64,000 nt of DNA from Chelativorans multitrophicus (lineage in GTDB: Bacteria; Pseudomonadota; Alphaproteobacteria; Rhizobiales; Rhizobiaceae): the NCBI RefSeq assembly GCF_011317445.1, contig NZ_JAAAPL010000002.1, positions 62,001-126,000 of the forward strand. Reading direction: 5' to 3'. Below, piece after piece: positions 1 through 10,996 of the stretch. Under the pieces are notes generated by a model that searched no databases, had not been told where the DNA came from, and was given only the letters and a program-made list of their open reading frames with translations. The position numbers were made by a program, and so were the translations under genes. The stretch's first letter is position 1; each line of letters opens with the position of its first letter.

Positions 1-339
1 GGCGGCGGCGCGGCGCTGGCGCGCGCGGCGGCGGCGATCACCGTTTCGCCCGAGGCTACGGTGGGCGCGATGGCAGGCGCGCGCATTGTGCAGGAGGCTC
101 TGCGGCAGCCCTGCTCGACCATCGCTCGCAATGCAGGCCATTCGTCGCCGGCTGCGGTTGCGGCTCTTTTGGCTGAAGCCGATCCCGACATCTGCTTCGA
201 CCTGCGCACATCTCGGTTTGGAAACATGCTGGACTTGGGCCTGTGCGACGCGGCGGCGCCCCTGGTGCATGGGTTGACGGTAGCCCAATCGATCACACGG
301 AGCTTCCTGGATGCTGAAATCCTGCTTATCCGGCGCTGA
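1..339 (+). CDS. GroEL-like chaperonin, C-terminal part only (runs off the left edge)
   Basis: The frame is open from base 1 to a TGA at 337-339. It starts in a Gly-Gly-Gly-Ala-Ala-Leu segment that corresponds to the PGGGVAL nucleotide-binding loop of GroEL. It continues through a G-ARIVQEAL helix, an IAxNAG turn, an FGNMLDLG segment and a conserved Asp in LGLCD, which matches the equatorial-domain ATP-site Asp of GroEL. The usual YNAAT-type motif reads FDLRT and there is no GGM tail, so it is a divergent paralogue rather than the housekeeping chaperonin. Accessory chaperonins next to catabolic genes are known to fold oxygenases, and that role is only an inference here. It converges on the IclR gene with a 34-base gap. 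Confidence 0.75.
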   Translation, partial: GGGAALARAAAAITVSPEATVGAMAGARIVQEALRQPCSTIARNAGHSSPAAVAALLAEADPDICFDLRTSRFGNMLDLGLCDAAAPLVHGLTVAQSITRSFLDAEILLIRR

Positions 340-373: not shown

Positions 374-1135
374 TCAGCCCGGCGACCAGCCCAGATCGCG
401 CGAGACGGTGTCGGCGGCGGCCACCACGATGGGCGCGACGTTGTCGATCGTCAAATGCGGCGAAGATCGTTCGGCGAATGCCACGCTCATGGCAGCTTGC
501 ACTTCGCCGGAGGCATTGCGCACCGGCGCGCCGACCGAGATCACGCCCAGTATCGTCTCTTCAACCACGCTGGCGTAGCCGGCCTCACGTGCCTCTCGAA
601 CCTGCTTAATAATCACGTCCGGATCGGTAATCGTGGCGGGCGTCATCTTAGGAAGCGGCTTCTCACGGAGGATCGCTTCGGCCTCGGCGTCATCCAACGC
701 CGCAAGCAAGACCTTGCCCATGGCGGTGCTGTGCAAAAATGCCAGCTCGCCCGGCGAATTGCGGATGGCAATCGGCCCAACCGATTGCACGCAGAGCAGA
801 TAGACGGCTTGGTTGCCATGGCGCCGGCCGAGATAGCCGTTCAGTTCGTGGTTGCTTGCGACCATTTCCAACTGCCGCTGCGCCGACACGATCATGCGGT
901 CCTTTCTCAGGATCGAATTGCCCAGGCTGAATGCGCGGTAGCCGATGCTGTAGCGGCGGCTTATTCTGTCCTGCTCGACAAAGCCGTGCTCAAGGAAGGT
1001 ATTCACCAGGCGCTGTACGATCGCATTGCTGAGCCCGATGTGGCGGGCGATCTCGCGGATGCCCATCGGTTCATTGGCGCGGTCCAGCAGGTCAAGAATC
1101 TGAAGCGCTCGTTCGAGTGATTGGCTGTTTGTCAT
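374..1135 (-). CDS. IclR-family transcriptional regulator
   Basis: The 253-residue protein has the IclR layout. An N-terminal winged helix-turn-helix (about residues 5-60, with GIREIARHIGLSNAIVQRLV as the recognition region) is followed by the ligand-binding IclR effector domain, with the typical GKVLLA segment near residue 140 and an SVGAPVRNASGEV motif near residue 200. It is divergent from the seven-gene operon starting at 1271. The 135-bp gap carries a consensus-like promoter with a palindrome, which makes it the obvious local regulator. IclR proteins may repress or activate; overlap of the palindrome with the -10 region favours repression. The effector is unknown. Confidence 0.9.
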   Translation of the reverse strand: MTNSQSLERALQILDLLDRANEPMGIREIARHIGLSNAIVQRLVNTFLEHGFVEQDRISRRYSIGYRAFSLGNSILRKDRMIVSAQRQLEMVASNHELNGYLGRRHGNQAVYLLCVQSVGPIAIRNSPGELAFLHSTAMGKVLLAALDDAEAEAILREKPLPKMTPATITDPDVIIKQVREAREAGYASVVEETILGVISVGAPVRNASGEVQAAMSVAFAERSSPHLTIDNVAPIVVAAADTVSRDLGWSPG

Positions 1136-1205: not shown

Positions 1206-1251
1206 TTGACAGGAATAGCGCACTACTCTACAAATAGGAACAACGTTCCTA
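1206..1251 (+). promoter_or_regulatory. Promoter of the seven-gene operon with a palindromic operator
   Basis: A perfect -35 hexamer TTGACA (1206-1211) is followed after 17 bases by TACAAA (1229-1234). A perfect palindrome TAGGAAC-AAC-GTTCCTA (1235-1251) lies over the expected transcription start, 20 bases before the lyase ATG. The spacing and position fit an operator for the divergent IclR protein. The sequence is seen directly; the assignment to IclR is inference. Confidence 0.65.
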
Positions 1252-1270: not shown

Positions 1271-2803
1271 ATGCTAGACGCCAGTAGCGCGGGTGGCTCT
1301 GCTGCCCCATCCGAGCCGTTGTTGACCGATGCGCGACTGGGAAAGAAGCCGGCCGACCGTCTTCAGCGGCACTATCTCCAGGCGACCTTGAAGCGTGAGG
1401 AGAACAAGTTCGACCAGATCATCGCCGTCGATCAGGCCCATGCGGTGATGTTGACGGAACAGGGTATTATTCCCCGCGCAACGGGGACGGCCCTACTGGT
1501 CCAGCTGTCCAAGCTGCGGCGCGAGGATGTCGGCATAGACGTGATGCGCGGCAGCATGTTGCTGCAGATCGAAGGGCACCTGGCCAGCAAGACCGGAAAC
1601 GAAGCCGCTGGCGCGCTCTCGACTGGGCGAAGCCGCATTGATCAGGGCGCGACCTTTCGCAGACTCTACGAACGCCAGGCAATTATCGCGGTCCTTACCG
1701 AGCTGATCGACCTGGAAGCCGCCGTGATTGCGCAAGCTGCAAATCATATCGACACCATCATGCCGGGATACACCCACCTACAGCCATCTCAGCCCTGGGT
1801 CTTCGGCCACTATCTTCTCGGTGTGGCGGAGCGGCTGGATATAGATCTCGTCCGGCTGGAGAGGGCCTACGCGGCGGTCAATCTCTGCCCGTTGGGAACA
1901 GTGGGAGGCAGCGGCTCGACGTGGCCGCTGGATCGGCATCGCGTGGCCAGCCTTCTGGGCTTCGACGGTATCGTCGAAAACGCGCGTCTGGGACGGGACA
2001 TCCAGTACACGGGCGACATCGCCGCGGCGGCCTCGATGCTTATGGCGACGCTGAACGACCTGGCGACGGACCTGCAGCTATGGTCGATGCAGGAGTTCGG
2101 ATTTGTCGAGCTGGACGCCGGCTATTGCGGCACCAGCAGCATCTTCCCGCAGAAGAAGAATCCGGTGGCGCTCGAAGGCGTCCGCTCGGCGGCGGCCGGC
2201 GCGGTTCAATGGGTGGGCAACGTGCTGGCGGTCTCGCGCGGGGTCGGCTCCGGCGACCTGGCGCTGCGAGGGGCGGCATTCCTGGACACGGCGCTGCAGA
2301 GCACGGCCCAGATGTGCGATCTGATGACTGGAGTGATGGAGACGCTGATCGTGCATAAGGACCGAATGGCCGAAAGGGCGGGCGAGGGCGGCACCACGGC
2401 AAGCAATCTCGCCGATACGCTGGTGCGCGAGCTGGGCCTTTCCTATCGGGCGGCCCACCATGCGGTCGGAAGATTCGTGCGGGTCTGCCTGGAGCGCAAC
2501 CTCCCGTTGACGGGCGTCAGAGCGTCCGAATTCCATGAAATGGCCGGCCTGGCCGACCAGCCCCGCCTCAGTGACGAGCAGCTTGCGGTTGCTTTGGATC
2601 CCGCCGGTTTCGTGCGGAGATGCCGGACGCCCGGTGGGGTCGCTCCCGAAGAGGTCGCGCGGCTGCACGCGGCCGCCGTCGAGCGGCTGGGTGAAAGCCG
2701 CGCGCGTCTGGAAGCGCGGATCGCTGCCTTGAATAGCGCGGAGCGAAAGCGGGCGGCGGCCATAGCGGCCATTTTGAACGCGCCGGAGGCGGCAACCCGA
2801 TGA
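1271..2803 (+). CDS. Argininosuccinate lyase-like protein of the fumarase/aspartase superfamily, substrate unknown
   Basis: The 510-residue protein carries the three superfamily regions: STGRSRIDQ (residues 118-126), GYTHLQ with T168-H169, and the signature loop GTSSIFPQKKNP with Ser289/Ser290. Members eliminate fumarate from a succinyl amine or succinyl thioether. Two positions differ from true argininosuccinate lyases: the Asn of SRND is Ile123, and the Met of SSxMP is Phe. Both argue against arginine biosynthesis, as does the catabolic setting. Known relatives with other substrates are EDDS lyase and S-(2-succino)cysteine lyase; I cannot choose between them. It is the first gene of the operon, has only a weak AGG ribosome site, and overlaps the next gene by an ATGA. 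Confidence 0.85.
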   Translation: MLDASSAGGSAAPSEPLLTDARLGKKPADRLQRHYLQATLKREENKFDQIIAVDQAHAVMLTEQGIIPRATGTALLVQLSKLRREDVGIDVMRGSMLLQIEGHLASKTGNEAAGALSTGRSRIDQGATFRRLYERQAIIAVLTELIDLEAAVIAQAANHIDTIMPGYTHLQPSQPWVFGHYLLGVAERLDIDLVRLERAYAAVNLCPLGTVGGSGSTWPLDRHRVASLLGFDGIVENARLGRDIQYTGDIAAAASMLMATLNDLATDLQLWSMQEFGFVELDAGYCGTSSIFPQKKNPVALEGVRSAAAGAVQWVGNVLAVSRGVGSGDLALRGAAFLDTALQSTAQMCDLMTGVMETLIVHKDRMAERAGEGGTTASNLADTLVRELGLSYRAAHHAVGRFVRVCLERNLPLTGVRASEFHEMAGLADQPRLSDEQLAVALDPAGFVRRCRTPGGVAPEEVARLHAAAVERLGESRARLEARIAALNSAERKRAAAIAAILNAPEAATR

Positions 2804-4002
2804 GCCGGCGCGATCTGGATCAACTGTCCCTGGCCTCTCAGCTTCGATCGCGGGTTTTTGCGCGAGGGCCGAACTTCGACGCGCTTATCACGTCCGACCC
2901 CGACCATGTGGGTTATCTGACCGGCTATCGAAGCATGTCCAGCGACATGAATCGCTATTATCCCATTGCGGCCGTCGCAACGGCGGACGATGCCATCCTA
3001 ATCGTCAGCGCCGGCGACGCTCCGCCGGCCCGCGAGGTCGTGGGCCAGGCAGTGATGACCTACGGTCGCTTCTTCGTGATGCAGGACGGCGCGTTCCAGC
3101 CTTCCGATGCGGATGAAGAGCGCTCGTTCGGCGTCGCCATCGTCCAAGCCGTGAACAGGCTCTGCGGCCCACGCGCGACCGTAGGCCTGGACTGCACTGG
3201 CCTCTCGGCACACGACGTCCGATCGGTTATTCAGCGCGACCTGCCGAATCTGCGGACCGTTTCTGCATCCCAATGGCTGCGCGACTGCCGCCGCACCAAG
3301 CTGCCCGGTGAAATCGGGCAACTGCGCCGTGCCGCACGCCTGCTGGAGCGCGGCATCGAAGCCGCTCTCGCAGCGGCGGAGCCTGGCGTGACCGAGCGAT
3401 ACATCGCCGCCCGGATCGCAAGCGCGGTGGTGGAGGGCGGCGGCGTACCGCGCTCGCTGGCGGTCACCTCGGGCCCGCGATCGGCCTTGGTCGACGCCTA
3501 TGCGGCCGAGCGGGAACTTCAGCCGGGCGACCTGCTCAGGCTCGACCTCAGCTGTACGTTTCAGGGCTATTGGGCCGATATGGCCCGGACAGCCGTCATC
3601 GAAGGCCCATCTCCGCTGCAGCGGCAGTATTTCGATGCCATTTCTTCGGGTCTGGCTGCTCAGCGCGAGATATTGCGCGCGGGCATTGAGGCGCGCCGGC
3701 TTTTTGACGTGGCGGTCGAAGCCACGCGCGGCAACGGTATCCCGCACTACCGCCGCCATCATTGCGGCCATGGCATCGGGGTTACGATCAACGAGTTTCC
3801 GGTGTTGTCGCCCGAAAACACCGCAGAGCTGGAGTCGGGGATGGTGCTGTGCATCGAGACACCGCTCTACGCGGCGGGCTGGGGCGGCATGATGACTGAG
3901 GACATCGTCGAAGTGACCGACACTGGATGGAACCCCATAACCGAACTGTCGCGCCACCTGCACGTCTGCACCGGCGGACGCGCTGAAGTTCTTGCCTCCT
4001 GA
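2800..4002 (+). CDS. M24-family metallopeptidase (Xaa-Pro aminopeptidase/creatinase fold)
   Basis: The 400-residue protein has an N-terminal creatinase-type domain (about 1-160) and a C-terminal pita-bread catalytic domain. All five dinuclear metal ligands are present: Asp249 (RLDLSC), Asp260 (WADMAR), His324 (GHGIG), Glu353 (CIETP) and Glu367 (MTEDIV). True creatinases and ectoine hydrolase share the fold but often lose metal ligands, so this is more likely a metal-dependent aminopeptidase or amidohydrolase acting on a small N-substituted compound. It begins at an ATG overlapping the lyase stop (ATGA), which indicates translational coupling. Its specific substrate cannot be read from the sequence. 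Confidence 0.85.
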   Translation: MSRRDLDQLSLASQLRSRVFARGPNFDALITSDPDHVGYLTGYRSMSSDMNRYYPIAAVATADDAILIVSAGDAPPAREVVGQAVMTYGRFFVMQDGAFQPSDADEERSFGVAIVQAVNRLCGPRATVGLDCTGLSAHDVRSVIQRDLPNLRTVSASQWLRDCRRTKLPGEIGQLRRAARLLERGIEAALAAAEPGVTERYIAARIASAVVEGGGVPRSLAVTSGPRSALVDAYAAERELQPGDLLRLDLSCTFQGYWADMARTAVIEGPSPLQRQYFDAISSGLAAQREILRAGIEARRLFDVAVEATRGNGIPHYRRHHCGHGIGVTINEFPVLSPENTAELESGMVLCIETPLYAAGWGGMMTEDIVEVTDTGWNPITELSRHLHVCTGGRAEVLAS

Positions 4003-4012
4003 CGAGATGCCT

Positions 4013-5203
4013 ATGTCGCCGTTGCTTATCAACCCGCCGCAGGATGATGACACTTGCTGTGTCCACCATCCCGAGATCGACGAGACCGGCTTTGCGGCCG
4101 TCACTGTTCCGGTCTGGCGCGCCTCGACCATCGTCTTTCCCGATATGGCCGCCTATGCGGCGCGCAACAGCAAGGGCCATGACGCCTACAGCTACGGCCT
4201 GCACGGTACGCCCACGACCCGCACCCTTGAGGCGCAGATCGCGCGGCTGGAAGGAGGGGGCCGCTCGATCGTGACGAGCTCGGGCCTGTCGGCGATCACG
4301 ATGACGCTGCAGACGATGCTGTCGCCCGGCGATACGGTCCTGCTCGTCGATACTGTCTACCCACCCGTGCGGGAATTCGCCGACCGCTTTCTCCGACGGA
4401 TGGGGGTCGATATCGTCTACTACGACCCGGCGATAGGAGCGGGAATCGCCGAGCTGATCACCGCCACGACGAGGCTGGTGTGGATGGAGTCGCCGGGATC
4501 CACGACGATGGAGGTCCAGGACATCCCCGCGATCGTGGCGGCCGCGCGTGCGCGTGGCGTACCCACGGCCATCGACAACACCTGGGCCACTCCGCTTCTG
4601 CTCAAACCTCTGGAACTGGGTGTTGATATCGTCATACAGGCGGTCAGCAAATATATGGCGGGTCATTCGGACCTGCTCATGGGGGCGGTGACCGTACGCG
4701 ACCTCGCGCTCTTCGACAGGTTGAGAACAGCATTCAAGCTGCTGGGGCACGGCGTTTCTCCCGACGATTGCTCGCTCGTCCTGCGAGGGCTGGAGACGCT
4801 GGCCGTCCGGCTGCGACAATCCTCGGCTTCCGCATTGGATCTGGCGAGGATGCTGGAGGAAAGCGGGCGCTTTCAGGCCGTTCTCCACCCGGCATTGCCC
4901 AGCTTTTCCGGCCACGCAATTTGGAAGCGCGACTTCAAGGGTGCGAGCGGAGTGTTCAGCGTGGTGCTTAAGCCAGAAAGCCTCGATCGGCTGCCAAACG
5001 CGCTCTCCCGGCTAAGAGTTTTCGCCATAGGCGCGTCCTGGGGCGGAACGCACAGCTTGGTCGCACCCATGGATATTACGGCCGCGCGCACGGCGACGGC
5101 ATGCCCATGGAGATGTCCGATCATCCGCCTCAGCGTCGGTATGGAAGGCCTCGCCGACCTGCGCGCGGACCTCCAGGCATTCGCCGGGGGACTGACGTCG
5201 TGA
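4013..5203 (+). CDS. MetC-like PLP-dependent C-S lyase (cystathionine beta-lyase family)
   Basis: This is a Cys/Met-metabolism PLP enzyme of about 396 residues. It has the phosphate-binding SSGLSA loop near residue 82, a DNTWATP segment carrying the PLP-pyridine Asp, and the Schiff-base Lys213 in SKYMAGHSD, with SWGGTHSL near the C terminus. The family removes thiols from cysteine conjugates by beta-elimination, giving pyruvate and ammonia. In this operon a C-S lyase beside a succinyl lyase and an NtaA/CmoJ-type monooxygenase suggests a sulfur-containing substrate. The start is uncertain: TTG 3992, ATG 4007 or ATG 4013 are in frame. I chose 4013 because GAG at 4004-4006 is correctly spaced. 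Confidence 0.85.
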   Translation: MSPLLINPPQDDDTCCVHHPEIDETGFAAVTVPVWRASTIVFPDMAAYAARNSKGHDAYSYGLHGTPTTRTLEAQIARLEGGGRSIVTSSGLSAITMTLQTMLSPGDTVLLVDTVYPPVREFADRFLRRMGVDIVYYDPAIGAGIAELITATTRLVWMESPGSTTMEVQDIPAIVAAARARGVPTAIDNTWATPLLLKPLELGVDIVIQAVSKYMAGHSDLLMGAVTVRDLALFDRLRTAFKLLGHGVSPDDCSLVLRGLETLAVRLRQSSASALDLARMLEESGRFQAVLHPALPSFSGHAIWKRDFKGASGVFSVVLKPESLDRLPNALSRLRVFAIGASWGGTHSLVAPMDITAARTATACPWRCPIIRLSVGMEGLADLRADLQAFAGGLTS

Positions 5204-5365
5204 AGCACCGAGACTGCCGAATAGGAATGGACGGGAAAATCATGCCGTCGTGCCGGCCGGCCAGCATACGACATCCAGCACGGGGCAGTCGTCGATGGCA
5301 AACAATAGGGACCAGGGGGCCGTATCGACCGCTGGTGAACGCAGTCTGAGGGAAGCGTCCGGGGC

Positions 5366-6703
5366 ATGTTCGCCGTACTGAACCATCCGATCTATCGCCG
5401 GCTTTTCACGGCCCAGGTCGTGTCTGTCCTGGGAACGGGGCTGGCGACCGTGGCGCTCGGTTTCCTGGCGCTGAAGATCAGCCCTCTTCAGGCCGGCTTG
5501 GTTCTGGGCATGGCCTTCGCCATACGTATGGTGGCAAATGTGGCGGTCACGCTTGCCGCAAACGCACTGTTGATGAACGTGCCGCGAATGCGGCTGCTTT
5601 CCATGCTAGATTATAGCCGTGCGGCGATGGTGCTGGCCTTTCCGTTCGTCTATGAGATCTGGCACATCTACGTGCTGGTCTTCTTGATCCAATCGGCTTC
5701 GGCTGTCGCATCGCCGCTGATGCAGGCCACCATTGCCGACACCGTCAAGGGTGAGGCCGATTATGGCCGCGCCCTCTCGATGACTCGTTTCGCTTACGAC
5801 GTCGAGCTGGTGATCAGTCCGGTTTTGGCGGCGGCGCTGCTGATGGTGACCACTTTCGAGTATCTGTTCGCCGGGACTGCGGCGGGTTTCGTCGTCTCGG
5901 GCTTGATCCTGGCCCACACGCGCACCGAGAAGACTGCTGCGAAGATTGCGCGGCGCGATGCGATCAATCGGATCGCCGTCGGGCTGCGGGCATATATCGA
6001 CACTCCGGCATTGCGTGCTGTGCTTGTGCTGAACTTCGCCGCCGCGGGCGCTCTGTGCACGGTACTGGTCATCACGGTCGTGCTGGTGCAGGTCCATCTG
6101 GGCTTAGGGGAAAGCCACACGGCCTTGGCGGTCGCCTGTTATGGCGCGGGGTCAATGGCGCTCGCACTGGCGCTGCCTGCGCTTTCCGCCCGCATTCCCG
6201 ACCGCATAGTGATGGTTTGCGGCGGGGTGCTGATCGCCTGCGCGCTGCTGCTTGCTGCCGCGCTGCCCAGCAATACGATGCTATGCTGTCTATGGTTTGC
6301 GCTCGGGATCGGCCATTCTTCGATCCAGACGCCGGCAGGCCGGGTGATCCGCGCCAGCGGTGATGAGGATCTCCGCACGGCACTTTTCGTCGCCAATTTC
6401 AGCCTCACCCATGCAGTGCGCCTCTCCGGATACCTGGTGGCAGGCTGGCTGGGCAGCCGAGCGGGCTTGCCGGTGGCGTTGGCCGCTGCCGGCGGAATTG
6501 CTCTGGCCGCCGCCGCGCTGGGAAGTCTGTTTTGGCGAACGCGGCGCCGGGGGCAGGACATTCATGTGCACAACGATCTGCCGGCGGACCATCCGCACCT
6601 CTTGCAGGTGCCGCTTTTCCGGGGCCGGCACAGGCATGAGCCTATTCAGGATTCGCTGCATGGCCATACCGACTTTCACCATCACGGGGTTTTGGGAAGA
6701 TGA
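5366..6703 (+). CDS. MFS transporter with a histidine-rich C-terminal tail
   Basis: The 445-residue membrane protein has about 11-12 hydrophobic segments. It resembles the EntS/NreB-type branch of the major facilitator superfamily. After the last membrane helix and an Arg-rich stop-transfer stretch, the final 46 residues contain 11 histidines, including a DHPH motif and a triple His near the end. Similar His-rich tails occur in NreB-type nickel efflux proteins, so metal or metal-chelate transport is plausible. A 160-base gap separates it from the upstream gene, and it overlaps the monooxygenase by ATGA. Import versus export cannot be decided from the sequence. Confidence 0.85.
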   Translation: MFAVLNHPIYRRLFTAQVVSVLGTGLATVALGFLALKISPLQAGLVLGMAFAIRMVANVAVTLAANALLMNVPRMRLLSMLDYSRAAMVLAFPFVYEIWHIYVLVFLIQSASAVASPLMQATIADTVKGEADYGRALSMTRFAYDVELVISPVLAAALLMVTTFEYLFAGTAAGFVVSGLILAHTRTEKTAAKIARRDAINRIAVGLRAYIDTPALRAVLVLNFAAAGALCTVLVITVVLVQVHLGLGESHTALAVACYGAGSMALALALPALSARIPDRIVMVCGGVLIACALLLAAALPSNTMLCCLWFALGIGHSSIQTPAGRVIRASGDEDLRTALFVANFSLTHAVRLSGYLVAGWLGSRAGLPVALAAAGGIALAAAALGSLFWRTRRRGQDIHVHNDLPADHPHLLQVPLFRGRHRHEPIQDSLHGHTDFHHHGVLGR

Positions 6704-8025
6704 GCAAGCGCCAGATCAAACTCGGCTTGTCCATGCGGCAACTGGGCTATCATGCCGGAGCATGGCGGCACCCTGACGTCAATCCGGGCGGAGCGATGGA
6801 CATTCAGCACTTTGTCCGGATCGCGCAGACGGCGGAGCGTGGTCTGTTCGACATGGTATTCCTCGCCGATGGGCTGGGCCTTCGCCAGACCGACAAACCG
6901 AAGGGCTCGCTGTCGCGTTCCAACCAGAACGTCGAACTGGAGCCGCTGACGATGTTGGCCGCCGTCGCCATGACGACGCGCCATGTGGGCCTCGTTGCAA
7001 CCGCGTCCACCAGCTATAACGAGCCCTTCCACATCGCCCGCAAATTCGCCTCGATTGACCACATCAGTGGCGGCCGCGCAGGTTGGAACATTGTCACCTC
7101 GTGGTCCGAGGAGGAAGCCAAGAATTTCAACAGAACCAAGCATTTCGAATATGACGAGCGCTATGCTCGCGCTGCCGAATTCGTGGAAGTCGTGCGCGGC
7201 CTCTGGGACTCCTGGGACGATGATGCCTTTGCTCATGACAAGAAGGAGGGGCTCTTCTTCCATCCCGACAAAATGCATGTGCTGAATCACAGGGGCGAGC
7301 ATTTTTCCGTGATGGGTCCTCTAACCGTCTCGCGTTCGCCGCAGGGGCATCCGGTATTGGTTCAAGCGGGCACTTCGCCCCAAGGACAGGAGATCGCAGC
7401 CGCCAGCGCGGATGTCGTCTTCACCGCTCAGACCGATCTGAAGGACGCCACGGAGTATTACCGATCGGTGAAGGGGCGAATGGCCAGATACGGGCGGAAG
7501 CCGGAGGATCTAAAAATCTTGCCCGGCCTGCTGCCGGTGGTCGGCAAGACGCGCGCGGAAGCCTCCGATAAGATGCAGCAGCTTCAGGACCTGATCCATC
7601 CGCTGGTTGGATTGGCGCATGTCTACGGCCCGATGGGAGACCTGTCGGGTTATCCTCTGGACGGGCCCGTGCCGGAGCCGGTTGATCCGGAACTGCGCAG
7701 CCGGGCGAAGGTCATGCTCGACCTGGCGCGCCGTAACAACTGGACTGTCCGGCAGCTATATCTCGCCGCCTCGGCCGGGCGCGGCCACCGGACGGTCGTG
7801 GGAACGCCGGCCGAGATCGTCGACGCGATGCAGGAATGGATCGATGCCGAGGGCGCCGACGGATTCAACATAGTGCCGCCCTATCTGCCGGGAGGTGCGG
7901 AGGATTTCGTCGACCTGGTGGTGCCGGAGCTGCAGAACCGGGGGCTGTACCGCACGGCTTACGAGGGCAGCACATTACGTGAAAATCTTGGCGTTCCCAA
8001 ACCGCCAAGCCGCTATGCCAGTTAG
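6700..8025 (+). CDS. NtaA/SnaA/DszA/CmoJ-family FMN-dependent monooxygenase (bacterial luciferase-like)
   Basis: The 441-residue protein has the family hallmarks in order: an N-terminal GAWRHPDV segment, DMVFLADG, LEPLTMLAA, a SGGRAGWNIVTS flavin-binding segment, VLVQAGTSPQG, and a C-terminal GADGFNI. These enzymes use reduced FMN supplied by a separate reductase and attack N- or S-linked carboxymethyl, succinyl or alkyl groups. Known substrates include nitrilotriacetate, EDTA, S-(2-succino)cysteine and dibenzothiophene sulfone. No flavin reductase lies in the operon, so the reductant must come from elsewhere. The start overlaps the MFS stop (ATGA), preceded by GGGAAG. Confidence 0.9.
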   Translation: MSKRQIKLGLSMRQLGYHAGAWRHPDVNPGGAMDIQHFVRIAQTAERGLFDMVFLADGLGLRQTDKPKGSLSRSNQNVELEPLTMLAAVAMTTRHVGLVATASTSYNEPFHIARKFASIDHISGGRAGWNIVTSWSEEEAKNFNRTKHFEYDERYARAAEFVEVVRGLWDSWDDDAFAHDKKEGLFFHPDKMHVLNHRGEHFSVMGPLTVSRSPQGHPVLVQAGTSPQGQEIAAASADVVFTAQTDLKDATEYYRSVKGRMARYGRKPEDLKILPGLLPVVGKTRAEASDKMQQLQDLIHPLVGLAHVYGPMGDLSGYPLDGPVPEPVDPELRSRAKVMLDLARRNNWTVRQLYLAASAGRGHRTVVGTPAEIVDAMQEWIDAEGADGFNIVPPYLPGGAEDFVDLVVPELQNRGLYRTAYEGSTLRENLGVPKPPSRYAS

Positions 8026-8034
8026 GACGCAGAC

Positions 8035-8862
8035 ATGAAACATGCCATCGAGGAAATGACGTTCGTCGAATTCCGGGAAGCGGCCAAGCACGATCCCGTG
8101 ATCATCATTCCCCTGGGCAGCCAGGAAACTCAGGGGCCGTGCAATCCCATGGGGGACTTCATGCTAGTGCGGCGGCTGGCGAACGAGGTCGCGTCGCGAA
8201 CGGGCTGCCTGGTGGCGCCGACCGTTCCGTTCGGCTTTGCCGACTGCTTCAGCACCGTGCCTGGTGGCATTCAAGTTTCGCCCGAAACCTTCATGAGCCT
8301 TGTCCGCGACGTGCTGCTGTCGTTTCTGAACCATGGGCTCAGGCGGCTGGTCATCATGAACGGTCATACCGGGAACAGCGCTCTTATAGATTTGACGGTC
8401 CGGCGCCTTAGACAAGAGCGCGGAGCGCTGGTGCCCTGGATCAATATATGGCCGCTGGCTTCGACCGGACGCCGAAACGAGGCGCACGGAGCGAATGCGG
8501 GACAGGCGACCGGGCACGGGGCCGACCCGATCGGTTCCGTGTACGAATACTACTATCCCAACCTCACCCGGCGAGAGCTGGCGACGACCGAGGGAACGGG
8601 TAAAACCTTTTTCGGCCTGCCGACGAGCGGATTGCAGTCGGTCGACCTGGCGGGGACTCCCGTCCATCTGCCAGTACGGGTCGACGATCACTGCGATTAT
8701 GTCGTGGGCGGCGATCCGTCGCTCGCCAATGCTGCGGCGGGAAGGATCTTTGCCGATTTCATCGTGGCCGAGTTCAGCAAGCTTGTCGAGCACGTGGCCG
8801 GCCTGCCGGCGGAGCAGCTGGTCGAACCGAAGCCGTCGCGGGTGGGAGGCACGGGTGCCTGA
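8035..8862 (+). CDS. Creatininase-family amidohydrolase with an altered metal motif
   Basis: The 275-residue protein follows the creatinine amidohydrolase (MftE/creatininase) pattern. A PLGSQETQG motif is followed by Asp41, an NGHTGN motif with His111, and a TGHGAD segment. In the usual E-x-H-G motif the His is replaced: Glu31 is kept but position 33 is Gln. The remaining ligands appear intact, so the metal site may be shifted rather than lost. The family opens small cyclic amides or trims peptides. It lies 9 bases after the monooxygenase and overlaps the aminotransferase start by 8 bases. The substrate is unknown. Confidence 0.85.
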   Translation: MKHAIEEMTFVEFREAAKHDPVIIIPLGSQETQGPCNPMGDFMLVRRLANEVASRTGCLVAPTVPFGFADCFSTVPGGIQVSPETFMSLVRDVLLSFLNHGLRRLVIMNGHTGNSALIDLTVRRLRQERGALVPWINIWPLASTGRRNEAHGANAGQATGHGADPIGSVYEYYYPNLTRRELATTEGTGKTFFGLPTSGLQSVDLAGTPVHLPVRVDDHCDYVVGGDPSLANAAAGRIFADFIVAEFSKLVEHVAGLPAEQLVEPKPSRVGGTGA

Positions 8863-9712
8863 CGATTCACGCGTGGTTTATGTCAATGGCGATTACGTCG
8901 CCGCCGCAGAAGCGAAAGTCTCCGTATTCGACCGCGGATTCTTGTTCGGCGATGGGATCTACGAGGTTACGGCCGTCGTTGATGGCCAGCTTGTGGACAG
9001 CGACGCCCATCTGAGCCGGCTGGCCCGATCCGCACGGGAAATCGGCATCTCGCTTCCCTGGACGGCAGCCGAGATCGAATCCGTCGAAAAACAGTTGATC
9101 GTGAAGAACGGCCTGCGCGAGGGCCTCGTCTATCTTCAGGTAACGCGCGGCATCGCCGACCGGGACTTCAACTATGGCTCGCTCGTGCCGAGCATTGTGC
9201 TGTTCACTCAGAAGAAATTACTTATCGAATCGCAAGCGGCCGCGCAGGGTATTGCCGTCAAATCTGTTCGCGATCTTCGATGGGCGAGGCGCGATATAAA
9301 GAGCGTGTGCCTTCTCCCGCAGGTTCTGGCAAAGGCCCTTGCCCGGTCCGAGGGATGTGCCGAGGCCTGGATGATCGACGAGAATGGACTTGTAACGGAA
9401 GGTGGGTCGTCGACGGCGTATATCGTGAAGAATCGCAGGATCTTTACGCGAGAGAATTCGCAAGCAATCCTGCCCGGCTGTACCCGTGCGTCGCTCCTTC
9501 ATCTGAGGCGACATCACGCCGTTGAGGTCATTGAACGTTCTTTTTCGCTCGAAGAGGCTTATGCCGCGGATGAAGCGTTCATAACCAGTGCCTCGTCTTT
9601 CGTAACACCTGTCATATCAATCGACGACCGCCGGATCGGCGAAGGTAAGCCCGGCGCGGTCACAAAGGCACTGCGGGAAGCTTACATCCGGTTCGCGCGT
9701 CGGGCCACATAG
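8855..9712 (+). CDS. Class IV PLP aminotransferase, D-amino-acid transaminase type
   Basis: I start this gene at GTG 8855, because a GGGAGG ribosome site lies 5 bases upstream (8844-8849); longer in-frame extensions run through the creatininase gene. The 285-residue product has the fold IV signatures: VSVFDRGFLFGDGIYE at the N terminus, the catalytic Lys149 in RRDIKS, and the EGGSSTAYIV phosphate-binding segment. The DIKS motif points to D-alanine/D-amino-acid transaminases rather than branched-chain ones. In the operon it could remove the amino group of a D-configured or racemised product. It is the last gene of the run. Confidence 0.88.
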   Translation: MPDDSRVVYVNGDYVAAAEAKVSVFDRGFLFGDGIYEVTAVVDGQLVDSDAHLSRLARSAREIGISLPWTAAEIESVEKQLIVKNGLREGLVYLQVTRGIADRDFNYGSLVPSIVLFTQKKLLIESQAAAQGIAVKSVRDLRWARRDIKSVCLLPQVLAKALARSEGCAEAWMIDENGLVTEGGSSTAYIVKNRRIFTRENSQAILPGCTRASLLHLRRHHAVEVIERSFSLEEAYAADEAFITSASSFVTPVISIDDRRIGEGKPGAVTKALREAYIRFARRAT

Positions 9713-10145
9713 GCAGTAGGACAGAAGGTACACGGCCGCCATCGCCCCAGAGTCCCAGCATCAGCTGCCGACGCCGCTTCGCTGTGCCGAGAGTTGAGTC
9801 AGAGTTCGTGTTGTTAGCCTAGGTTCCTGACCTGCAGGTTTTGGCGCGATCAGCGGTACTTTTGATAAATGACATTCCGTGACCACTTCAATGGGGAGCG
9901 CCGATTCTGCTCGGCGACGTGCCGAGCCCCCTCGAGCCGCCGTCCGGCTGCCGCTTTCATACGCGCTGTTCGATCGCCCGGGATGTCTGCCGAAGAGCCG
10001 TGCCGGAATAGCTAGAGATCGACTCGGGACATCGCGTCGCCTGTCATGCGGCGACTTTTCGCTGGCTCTAGCACAATCTCGGCTCTCCCTACCGCTTCCG
10101 GATCGGAAGGGAGGTCAACGAAAAGGGCGTTGGATTTAAACAAGG
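9713..10145. other. 433-bp stretch with no supported gene
   Basis: This lies between the aminotransferase stop and the convergent GntR gene. The only ORF of note is an 86-codon frame on the + strand (9879-10139) with no recognisable domain, Arg-rich composition and no ribosome site. I found no convincing terminator hairpin with a T-tract. It may contain remnants of an earlier gene. Confidence 0.4.
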
Positions 10146-10883
10146 TCAGACTGCCACTTTGCCGAGAGATGCAAACGGCCCTGCCTTTTGCTCGATAGAT
10201 GCCTGATTTATAAGAAAGTCACGGGTCTTGCCGATGTCCAGGACCATGGCGGATTGCGCAGCCTCGGGGTCCTTTTTCTTAAATGCATCCTGCAGAAGAC
10301 GGTGGCCTGAATTGTCCCAAAGGTTGTTTGGAGAATTGAACGAATAATACATGGTCGGCCCGCAACGAAGCCAGAGTGATTCGATTATCGGCATCAGGAC
10401 CTCTGAATCGGCGGCCTCGTATATGGTGAAGTGAAATTTCTGATTCAGGCGTAGAACTTCGGTCATGTTCATCGCCTTGAGGCTCTTTAGGAGAGCGTCG
10501 TTGATCTCCCTCAGGTCGCGTACGATCGATGGTCCAACGGTTTCGCAGGCAATTCGCGTTGCAATCGCTTCGATTGATAGTCGTATTTCAAAGATTTCCT
10601 TTAGTCCCTTGGCGGACAGCTTCGGGACACGAACAGATCCATTTGGCAGTTCTTCCAGCGCATGGGCGGCGACGAGCCGGTTAAGGCTTTCCCGGACGGG
10701 CATAGCGCTTGTACCCAAGCTTGATGCTAGCTTTCGCAGACTGAAAACGTGGCCGGGAAGGAAAACTCCGGACATCAAGGCGTCTTTCAGATTTGCGAGA
10801 ACCTGATCTTGAACAACCGATCGCGACCGCTTTGGATGTTCGGACGACGGGGCCTCCCCAGCGAGATCTCCCAGTTTGTTCAT
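10146..10883 (-). CDS. GntR-family regulator, FCD type
   Basis: The product of about 245 residues has an N-terminal GntR winged helix (SLRKLASSLGTSAMPVRESL, with the characteristic VRE-LNRL turn) and a C-terminal all-helical FCD ligand domain. The domain has an RLSIEA segment and FH-IYEAADS, where His and Asp residues usually bind a metal and a carboxylate ligand. I start it at ATG 10883, since the family rarely extends further. An in-frame GTG at 10994 would add 37 residues without family similarity and would place the start inside a palindrome. It faces the seven-gene operon and may be a second regulator of it. Its base composition is visibly more AT-rich than its neighbours. Confidence 0.85.
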   Translation of the reverse strand: MNKLGDLAGEAPSSEHPKRSRSVVQDQVLANLKDALMSGVFLPGHVFSLRKLASSLGTSAMPVRESLNRLVAAHALEELPNGSVRVPKLSAKGLKEIFEIRLSIEAIATRIACETVGPSIVRDLREINDALLKSLKAMNMTEVLRLNQKFHFTIYEAADSEVLMPIIESLWLRCGPTMYYSFNSPNNLWDNSGHRLLQDAFKKKDPEAAQSAMVLDIGKTRDFLINQASIEQKAGPFASLGKVAV

Positions 10884-10971
10884 AAGGGCTTCCCTATCAC
10901 CTGTGGTGCAGCCAATTGTATTCCGCCTTATGACATGTTCCCGAAAACTTCGAAATAGCCGATTGACAATG

Positions 10972-10996
10972 TCGTGATTAGTTACTGTGATCACGA
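10972..10996. promoter_or_regulatory. Palindrome TCGTGAT-N11-ATCACGA upstream of the GntR gene
   Basis: A perfect 7-bp inverted repeat with an 11-base spacer lies 89 bases upstream of the chosen GntR start. Size and position suit an operator of the GntR protein itself. This is seen in the sequence; the function is inferred. Confidence 0.4.

What the first reader, a model, noticed from the sequence alone, without database searches (positions are those of the whole stretch)
1271..9712. Seven-gene catabolic operon with no described counterpart that I recognise
Seven genes run in one direction, six joined by overlaps or gaps under 12 bases and one (MFS) after a 162-base gap: ASL-like lyase, M24 peptidase, MetC-like C-S lyase, MFS with His-rich tail, NtaA/CmoJ-type FMN monooxygenase, creatininase-type amidohydrolase and D-amino-acid transaminase. 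Regulators flank the block on both sides (IclR, GntR). The parts are each known from breakdown of N- or S-linked succinyl compounds, chelators or cyclic amides, but I know no system with this set. Proposed order: import, then oxidative or eliminating cleavage by monooxygenase, lyase and PLP enzyme, then hydrolysis, then deamination. A thioether or chelator is favoured; the substrate is unknown.
Basis: partly seen in the sequence, partly recalled or inferred. Interest (0 to 1): 0.85.

Follow-up and report, generated by a model that had tools for sequence, protein, structure and literature searches.

The report
Opine-like compound breakdown operon, EDTA-eating bacterium
A bacterium from the EDTA-degrading genus Chelativorans carries a seven-gene operon, probably switched together with its own import pump, that looks built to take apart a still unknown chelator-like or opine-like compound, using a lyase that matches neither of the two characterised lyases it was compared with.

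Summary
The seven genes are real and tightly packed at 1271-9712. The genome carries the crystallised EDDS lyase and EDTA monooxygenase of Chelativorans sp. BNC1, but both lie elsewhere, so the operon is neither known pathway. A perfect palindrome (1235-1251) sits between iclR and the lyase gene. Its only one-mismatch copy in the 4.8-Mb genome lies at the same promoter position before an opine/polyamine-type ABC-transporter operon that ends beside iclR. I read these as one IclR regulon with ABC import; the MFS protein looks exporter-like. The lyase belongs to a 13-row clade (100/99) that keeps most catalytic residues but changes two substrate-contact positions invariant in the ArgH/EDDS-lyase group. 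No other locus held has five of the seven families (0 of 111, a biased sample); Paracoccus onubensis shares IclR, lyase, M24 and MetC-like genes. Best reading: breakdown of an imported opine-like aminopolycarboxylate by C-N (possibly C-S) cleavage, PLP elimination and hydrolysis. The substrate is unknown; thioethers remain the main rival.

The parts
1..339 (+). C-terminal end of a divergent GroEL-like protein, last gene of the ABC-transporter operon that begins outside the window at G000:C8:56655
374..1135 (-). IclR-family regulator, divergent from the operon
   Evidence: PF01614 116.6 bits, PF09339 62.9 bits
1206..1234 (+). Promoter-like TTGACA-17-TACAAA; the ABC operon has TTGACA-17-GATAAA before its palindrome
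   Evidence: read by eye from the sequence; the consensus scan did not list it
1235..1251 (.). Perfect 7-3-7 palindrome TAGGAACAACGTTCCTA, probable IclR operator
   Evidence: second copy with one mismatch at G000:C8:56599-56615
1271..2803 (+). ASL-superfamily lyase of the RSR[IL]DQ clade
   Evidence: PF00206, PF14698
2800..4002 (+). M24-family metallohydrolase
   Evidence: PF00557 141.4 bits; motifs with two Asp, GHGIG, IETP and TEDI present; that these are the five metal ligands is recalled
4007..5203 (+). Cystathionine-beta-lyase-like PLP enzyme without the Arg that binds the distal carboxylate of cystathionine (searches used 3992-5203 or 4010-5203)
   Evidence: TIGR01324 400.7 bits, cut-off 365.9
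5366..6703 (+). MFS transporter, exporter-like by family, with a His-rich C-terminal tail
   Evidence: PF07690 85.5 and PF05977 38.3 bits; TIGR00900 175.5 bits, cut-off 319.6
6700..8025 (+). NtaA/DmoA-family FMN-dependent monooxygenase
   Evidence: TIGR03860 587 bits, cut-off 279.7
8035..8862 (+). Creatininase-family hydrolase, GSQExQGP subfamily
   Evidence: PF02633 151 bits
8855..9712 (+). D-amino-acid-transaminase-family PLP enzyme
   Evidence: PRK06680 389 bits, cut-off 320; TIGR01121 241.8 bits, below its cut-off of 277.45
10035..10055 (+). Terminator-like hairpin after the operon
   Evidence: not above chance for the region as a whole
10146..10994 (-). GntR/FCD regulator, converging on the operon
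   Evidence: PF07729, PF00392; link to the operon untested

Best explanation
The operon is the enzyme half of an IclR-controlled regulon; the other half is the adjacent opine/polyamine-type ABC transporter operon. Together they import and dismantle an opine-like aminopolycarboxylate, that is an amino acid carrying an N-linked carboxyalkyl (succinyl-like) arm. Proposed order: ABC import; beta-elimination by the ASL-type lyase, which removes the unsaturated acid arm and frees an amino-acid-like amine; PLP beta-elimination by the MetC-like enzyme on the released beta-substituted alanine; oxidative removal of other carboxyalkyl arms by the FMN monooxygenase; opening of amide or lactam forms by the M24 and creatininase-family hydrolases; transamination of a released D- or L-amino acid; export of an overflow product or metal by the MFS protein. 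Shown here: gene order, families, catalytic motifs, the shared palindrome and promoter layout, the lyase clade and its changed contacts, sequence kinship of the binding proteins to opine-binding ones. Inferred: cotranscription, IclR binding, substrate, every reaction and their order.
For: Palindrome: exact at the operon, one mismatch before the ABC operon; the other four genome sites with at most two mismatches all have two (the reversed-pattern control gives 17, so two-mismatch sites mean nothing). Both sites follow TTGACAGG and a -10-like hexamer. The ABC binding protein matches two unnamed ABC proteins (3rpw, 4i1d), then mannopine (5l9s), polyamine (4eq7) and agropine (6hly) proteins; the neighbouring Opp-type binding protein matches AgaA at 224 bits, next 157. 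An opine dehydrogenase (PF02317, 119.8 bits) lies in the region. The lyase scores 227 bits to wild-type EDDS lyase and at most 173 to solved ArgH. Of 12 foreign clade loci, 9 have peptide- or opine-type ABC genes near the lyase, 2 a TctC-type binding protein, 1 neither; EDDS lyase itself has Opp-type genes beside it (L151). Asp and Arg at EDDS positions 320 and 325 in 13 of 13 clade rows could bind an amino-acid leaving group (human ASL Tyr323/Gln328 recalled). The MetC-like enzyme lacks Arg58, which contacts cystathionine's distal carboxylate (PMC5025676, passages). A CGS-fold PLP enzyme also sits two genes after the lyase in Roseibium, and IclR and M24 are also neighbours in Tistrella.
Against: The clade lacks Asn113, one of six EDDS-lyase residues close to the substrate (PMC12363623, passage), so the released acid may not be fumarate. 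The tree puts EDDS lyase with ArgH, not with this clade. Loss of Arg58 is not special to this operon: own MetC-like proteins L159 and L162 lack it too, so it is weak evidence. The monooxygenase is closer to YtnJ/CmoJ (365 bits), a sulfur enzyme, than to EDTA monooxygenase (215 bits). The palindrome is not found at the P. onubensis locus; a perfect palindrome with 7-base arms arises in 458 of 20,000 mononucleotide shuffles of the 135-base gap, so the weight lies on the second site. No RNA, binding or enzyme data exist.
Confidence: 0.45

Rival explanations
1. Thioether catabolism: the substrate is an S-succinyl or S-alkyl cysteine (or its peptide); the lyase works like S-(2-succino) lyase, the monooxygenase like YxeK/CmoJ, the MetC-like enzyme as a C-S lyase.
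For: An ASL-family enzyme that cleaves S-succinyl bonds exists (2SL, PMC9706529, abstract and two sections). The monooxygenase is close to YtnJ/CmoJ (that YtnJ is CmoJ is recalled), which cleaves S-alkylcysteine sulfoxides (PMC10863075, abstract and passages). The MetC-like protein passes TIGR01324.
Against: The described 2SC route uses N-acetylation and deacetylation; none of the seven proteins, nor the 10 region proteins scanned (of roughly 30), is an acetyltransferase or M20 deacetylase. Neighbouring binding proteins are opine-type by sequence. No 2SL sequence was available, so the clade was not compared with 2SL.
Confidence: 0.23
2. The operon degrades a known synthetic chelator (EDTA, NTA, EDDS, DTPA, iminodisuccinate).
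For: The genome carries EDDS lyase and EDTA monooxygenase; iminodisuccinate cleavage would yield D-aspartate for a D-transaminase (recalled).
Against: EDTA and EDDS genes lie elsewhere (C8:474189 and C1:1020652); the monooxygenase is 33% identical to EmoA; no MmgE/PrpD epimerase among the 10 region proteins scanned.
Confidence: 0.1
3. A loose scavenging cluster: separate enzymes for peptides, lactams and D-amino acids gathered in one operon without a single pathway.
For: Outside this genome the seven families were not found together (0 of 111 loci with five or more); in the creatininase loci read (3 plasmid, 10 genome) the gene sits with peptide-type ABC or TRAP-like transporters and no lyase.
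Against: Tight overlaps, one probable operator shared with a transporter operon, and the IclR-lyase-M24-MetC core kept in P. onubensis.
Confidence: 0.22

Closest known systems
EDDS lyase of Chelativorans sp. BNC1 with its Opp-type ABC genes (PDB 6g3d; own locus L151)
   Same: ASL superfamily, catalytic motif, transporter next to the lyase, C-N elimination from aminopolycarboxylates
   Different: 34% identity; Asn113 and Tyr320 replaced by Ile and Asp, Asp290 by Val, Gln159 by His; the other operon families were not seen at L151 in the 20 kb held
EDTA operon of Chelativorans (EDTA ABC transporter, EmoA, EmoB; PMC7312458, passages)
   Same: ABC import plus FMN monooxygenase of family TIGR03860 in the same organism
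   Different: the window monooxygenase is 33% identical to EmoA and 76% to a paralogue in the region; no lyase is mentioned in the passages seen
2SC breakdown with S-(2-succino) lyase (PMC9706529)
   Same: lyase-class-I enzyme or FMN monooxygenase attacking a succinyl adduct
   Different: no acetyltransferase or deacetylase in the operon; sequence kinship of the lyases untested
Opine catabolic region of pTiEU6 (PMC6733357, passages)
   Same: ABC genes most related to potABCD, an opine dehydrogenase, and hydantoinase/oxoprolinase genes suggested to open lactam rings
   Different: pTiEU6 uses FAD-binding opine dehydrogenase complexes; the word lyase does not occur in that text
Paracoccus onubensis locus L052
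   Same: IclR 59%, lyase 55%, M24 49%, MetC-like 62%, plus a class V PLP protein like that of the region (39%)
   Different: Opp-type ABC genes inside the cluster; no monooxygenase, creatininase, transaminase or MFS match in the 14.5 kb held, which a contig end cuts about 3 kb before the lyase

Membership tests
ASL/fumarase superfamily | Lyase_1 and ASL_C2 domains; catalytic Ser loop, Lys, Asn, Thr-His | tested here: met
   PF00206 109.9 and PF14698 53.3 bits, both over cut-off; S280, S281, K287, N288, T158 equivalents and His at 159 in the window protein
Argininosuccinate lyase (ArgH) | Curated model TIGR00838 | tested here: met
   283 bits, cut-off 279.5: a narrow pass
Argininosuccinate lyase (ArgH) | Substrate contacts conserved in the ArgH/EDDS group (Asn113, Tyr320 in EDDS numbering) | tested here: not met
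   Ile and Asp in the window protein; Asn and Tyr in 13 of 13 rows of that group. A further ASL-family gene at C12:93937 is presumably the real argH; it was not examined
EDDS lyase | Active-site residues of 6g3d (N113, Q159, D290, Y320) and clade | tested here: not met
   I, H, V and D in the window protein; separate group in the tree
Coenzyme M synthesis XcbC | NCBIfam NF052535 cut-off 575 | tested here: not met
   278.2 bits
yxe / 2SC locus | At least three of five components (monooxygenase, acetyltransferase, ABC, deacetylase, YxeQ) | tested here: not met
   no acetyltransferase or M20 deacetylase among the 7 operon proteins; region scanned only in part, 10 proteins
S-(2-succino) lyase | Sequence kinship of the lyase to 2SL | not tested
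   no 2SL sequence was available here
EDTA/NTA monooxygenase operon | EmoA orthologue | tested here: not met
   the EmoA match (896 bits to 5dqp) is at C8:474189
NtaA/DmoA FMN monooxygenases | TIGR03860 cut-off | tested here: met
   587 vs 279.7 bits
Cystathionine beta-lyase | TIGR01324 cut-off | tested here: met
   400.7 vs 365.9 bits
Cystathionine beta-lyase | Arg58 for the distal carboxylate of cystathionine | tested here: not met
   Leu in the window, MetC2 and P. onubensis enzymes; Arg in own L160 and E. coli; also absent from own L159 and L162
Creatininase | TIGR04448 cut-off | tested here: not met
   79.2 vs 235 bits; PF02633 membership is met
Opine catabolic region | Opine-type binding protein and opine dehydrogenase nearby | tested here: inconclusive
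   PF02317 119.8 bits over a cut-off of 30; binding proteins related to opine-binding ones by sequence; ligands unknown
Opine catabolic region | Growth on an opine | not testable with these tools
   needs culture

The most novel reading that the evidence does not exclude
The lyase clade RSR[IL]DQ defines a new activity in the ASL superfamily: C-N cleavage that frees a 2,3-diaminopropionate-like amino acid, passed to a MetC-like enzyme that eliminates at a C-N rather than a C-S bond. The operon would then be a dedicated pathway for marasmine-type fungal metallophores (toxin A, aspergillomarasmines, lycomarasmine), whose N-succinyl, diaminopropionate, N-carboxymethyl and piperazinone parts match the lyase, MetC-like enzyme, monooxygenase and cyclic-amide hydrolase one to one. 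The EDTA habit of Chelativorans would have grown out of such natural-chelator degradation.
Probability: 0.12. Interest if true: 0.85.

Novelty: new variant of a known kind. Interest (0 to 1): 0.52.

Why it matters
EDDS lyase is already used as a biocatalyst; a clade with other contacts could widen that use.

Tried and rejected
MmgE/PrpD epimerase (iminodisuccinate route): guessed for two region genes; Pfam showed an amidase and a GroEL-like protein, so the idea was dropped. EDTA, NTA and EDDS: set aside because the crystallised enzymes map elsewhere. Coenzyme M synthesis: XcbC model far below cut-off; the Xanthobacter plasmid record tried was not held. Mimosine-type C-N lyases as a precedent for the MetC-like enzyme: the one paper looked into (PMC6514861, passages) does not state a cystathionine-lyase origin, so it is not used. 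Recurrence of the whole operon: not found in the loci examined. Neighbourhoods were read for 4 of 6 strong lyase plasmid hits, 5 of 8 M24, 2 of 35 MetC-like, 2 of 138 monooxygenase and 3 of 21 creatininase plasmid hits, and for 10 of 12 other-genome creatininase hits; recurrence around those genes is under-sampled. Structure prediction could not be run. Literature searches reached only the held open library.
Full report
What was checked. The seven genes exist as described, in one direction, with overlaps of 4, 4 and 8 bases, gaps of 4 and 9 bases, and one gap of 162 bases before the MFS gene (the MetC-like start is taken as ATG 4007). IclR diverges upstream and a GntR/FCD regulator converges downstream. 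Cotranscription is likely from the spacing but untested.

Where it is. The window is G000:C8:62001-126000. Two proteins tie the genome to Chelativorans sp. BNC1 or a close strain: a lyase at C1:1020652 is 100% identical over 454 residues to the EDDS lyase of PDB 6g3d, and a monooxygenase at C8:474189 matches the EDTA monooxygenase of PDB 5dqp with 896 bits over 400 residues. The papers that name these as BNC1 enzymes were seen in passages only (PMC12363623, PMC9486952, PMC7312458). Contig C8 seems to carry elongation factor Tu (recognised by eye from the start of an open frame, L164), so the locus is probably chromosomal. The operon is therefore not the EDTA or EDDS pathway.

The region. Upstream (C8:24,000-62,000) lie two further lyases (41% and 38%), a second MetC-like enzyme (49%), IclR (52%), monooxygenase (76%), two M24 proteins (38% and 26%), an amidase, an opine dehydrogenase, an enolase-superfamily protein, a Rid protein, a flavin reductase, a class V PLP enzyme and several transporters. 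A further cluster at C8:435-455 kb has a creatininase-family gene (48%), a monooxygenase (54%) and ABC transporters.

Regulation. Between iclR and the lyase gene is a perfect palindrome, TAGGAAC-AAC-GTTCCTA. The whole genome has six places with at most two mismatches: one exact, one with a single mismatch, four with two; the reversed control pattern gives 17, so only the first two carry weight. In the 20-kb stretch L010 two matches with at most three mismatches were found, where 4 of 200 shuffles gave as many; in the window itself two, where 18 of 100 shuffles gave as many. The one-mismatch site ends 39 bases before the first gene of an ABC operon (binding protein, two permeases, ATPase, GroEL-like protein) whose last gene ends inside the window. 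At both sites TTGACAGG, a 17-base spacer and a -10-like hexamer precede the palindrome (read by eye; the scan listed no promoter in the window stretch). This is fair evidence for one regulon, with repression by IclR as the simplest mechanism. It was not found at the P. onubensis locus; a perfect palindrome with 7-base arms arises in 458 of 20,000 mononucleotide shuffles of the gap.

Import. The ABC binding protein matches two unnamed ABC proteins (157 and 153 bits) and then mannopine, polyamine and agropine proteins (136, 133, 117 bits). The Opp-type binding protein of the neighbouring cluster matches AgaA (recalled as the agropinic-acid binding protein) with 224 bits, next 157. The MFS protein matches the neutral MFS_1, the secretion-type MFS_3 and, below cut-off, an H+-antiporter model.

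The lyase. It passes the ArgH model narrowly (283 against 279.5 bits), but its best solved relative is EDDS lyase (227 bits to wild type against at most 173 for ArgH). All 13 rows keep the serine loop, threonine, lysine and asparagine; the histidine next to the threonine is cysteine in 3 of 13. At EDDS-lyase position 113 they have Ile or Leu (13 of 13; also both paralogues of the region), at 320 Asp (13 of 13) and at 325 Arg (13 of 13). The 13 rows of the EDDS/ArgH group (12 different) have Asn at 113 and Tyr at 320 (13 of 13 each). Position 290 is Asp in 12 of those 13 and in 1 of 13 clade rows. Asp320 alone also occurs in a sister group of six and in two other rows, so the signature is the pair. 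Positions 113, 290 and 320 are 4-6 A from substrate in EDDS lyase (PMC12363623, passage).

Distribution. At E <= 1e-75 the lyase is found in 4 of 397 order genomes, 7 of 385 class genomes and 1 of 398 phylum genomes, each count including this genome and the sets overlapping. Of the nine foreign genomes only three (G360, G674, G948) have the clade motif; the others carry the RSRNDQ sister type. In the family search of 199 genomes the best foreign match was 9e-62. Of 111 foreign loci of at least 5 kb held, 100 have one of the seven families, 10 have two, one has three (P. onubensis) and none more; most were fetched by similarity to the lyase, so the sample is biased.

Mechanism. The class of chemistry follows from the families: beta-elimination by the lyase, PLP-dependent elimination, flavin-dependent oxidative cleavage, amide hydrolysis, transamination. 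The order is inferred. Two residue patterns hint at an amino-acid leaving group that is not cystathionine: the Asp/Arg pair in the lyase, and the absence of Arg58, Arg59 and Asp116 in the MetC-like enzyme, whose catalytic residues are otherwise kept (role of Arg58 from PMC5025676, passages). The second is weak, since other MetC-like proteins of the genome lack Arg58 too. Opine-type import and the chelator habit of the host favour an N-linked substrate; the CmoJ-like monooxygenase keeps the thioether reading alive. Marasmines fit the genes on paper: toxin A is N-(2-amino-2-carboxyethyl)aspartate, aspergillomarasmine A turns non-enzymatically into a piperazinone (PMC9503419, passages), and EDDS lyase makes toxin A from diaminopropionate and fumarate (PMC10792612, passages); that aspergillomarasmine B carries an N-carboxymethyl group is recalled. 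This remains a guess.

Verdict. A real, well-formed and, as far as the searches reach, undescribed catabolic regulon in a chelator specialist, with a lyase subclade of unknown activity. It is a new variant of a known kind (ABC import plus ASL-type lyase catabolism), not a new kind of system.

Noticed in passing
window 1-339 and L010:16759-18339; L056:8185-9987 (minus): A divergent GroEL-like protein ends the ABC operon (its motif reads DGGST where the other has DGTTT); a GroEL-like gene (30% identical) sits beside the lyase in a Paracoccaceae MAG with the same type of ABC transporter. A chaperonin in a catabolic operon is unexplained.
   Followed up: partly
L044, L132, L138: Three lyases of the clade have Cys in place of the His beside the catalytic Thr (YTC for YTH). 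In two of the three loci (L044; L143 for L132) an open frame matching the enolase-superfamily protein of the region lies just before the lyase; in the third (L147) a partial match lies some 8 kb away.
   Followed up: no
L168:8225-16914, L169:8180-16888: Recurrent module on Aminobacter and Shinella plasmids: UTRA regulator, M24 hydrolase, class V PLP enzyme and Opp-type ABC transporter; M24, class V PLP and Opp-type genes also occur together in the region and in P. onubensis.
   Followed up: partly
L152:9083-10621 (minus), G000:C1:1850588: A highly diverged ASL-family protein (tree branch over 4) without the RSRND motif, with peptide-type ABC genes on both sides.
   Followed up: no
L144:9061-10569, L145:5113-6543 (minus): Sister-type lyases (RSRNDQ) near Opp-type ABC genes, an M24 protein and other hydrolase-like genes (one looks like an arginase/agmatinase by eye); possibly a guanidino-compound pathway.
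   Followed up: no
window 6557-6703: The MFS protein ends in a His-rich tail, suggesting metal binding or metal-linked export.
   Followed up: no
creatininase-family proteins: In most of the relatives listed the motif resembles GSQExQGPxxPMGDFML, with Gln where creatininase is recalled to have a metal-binding His; the chemistry may differ from creatininase.
   Followed up: partly
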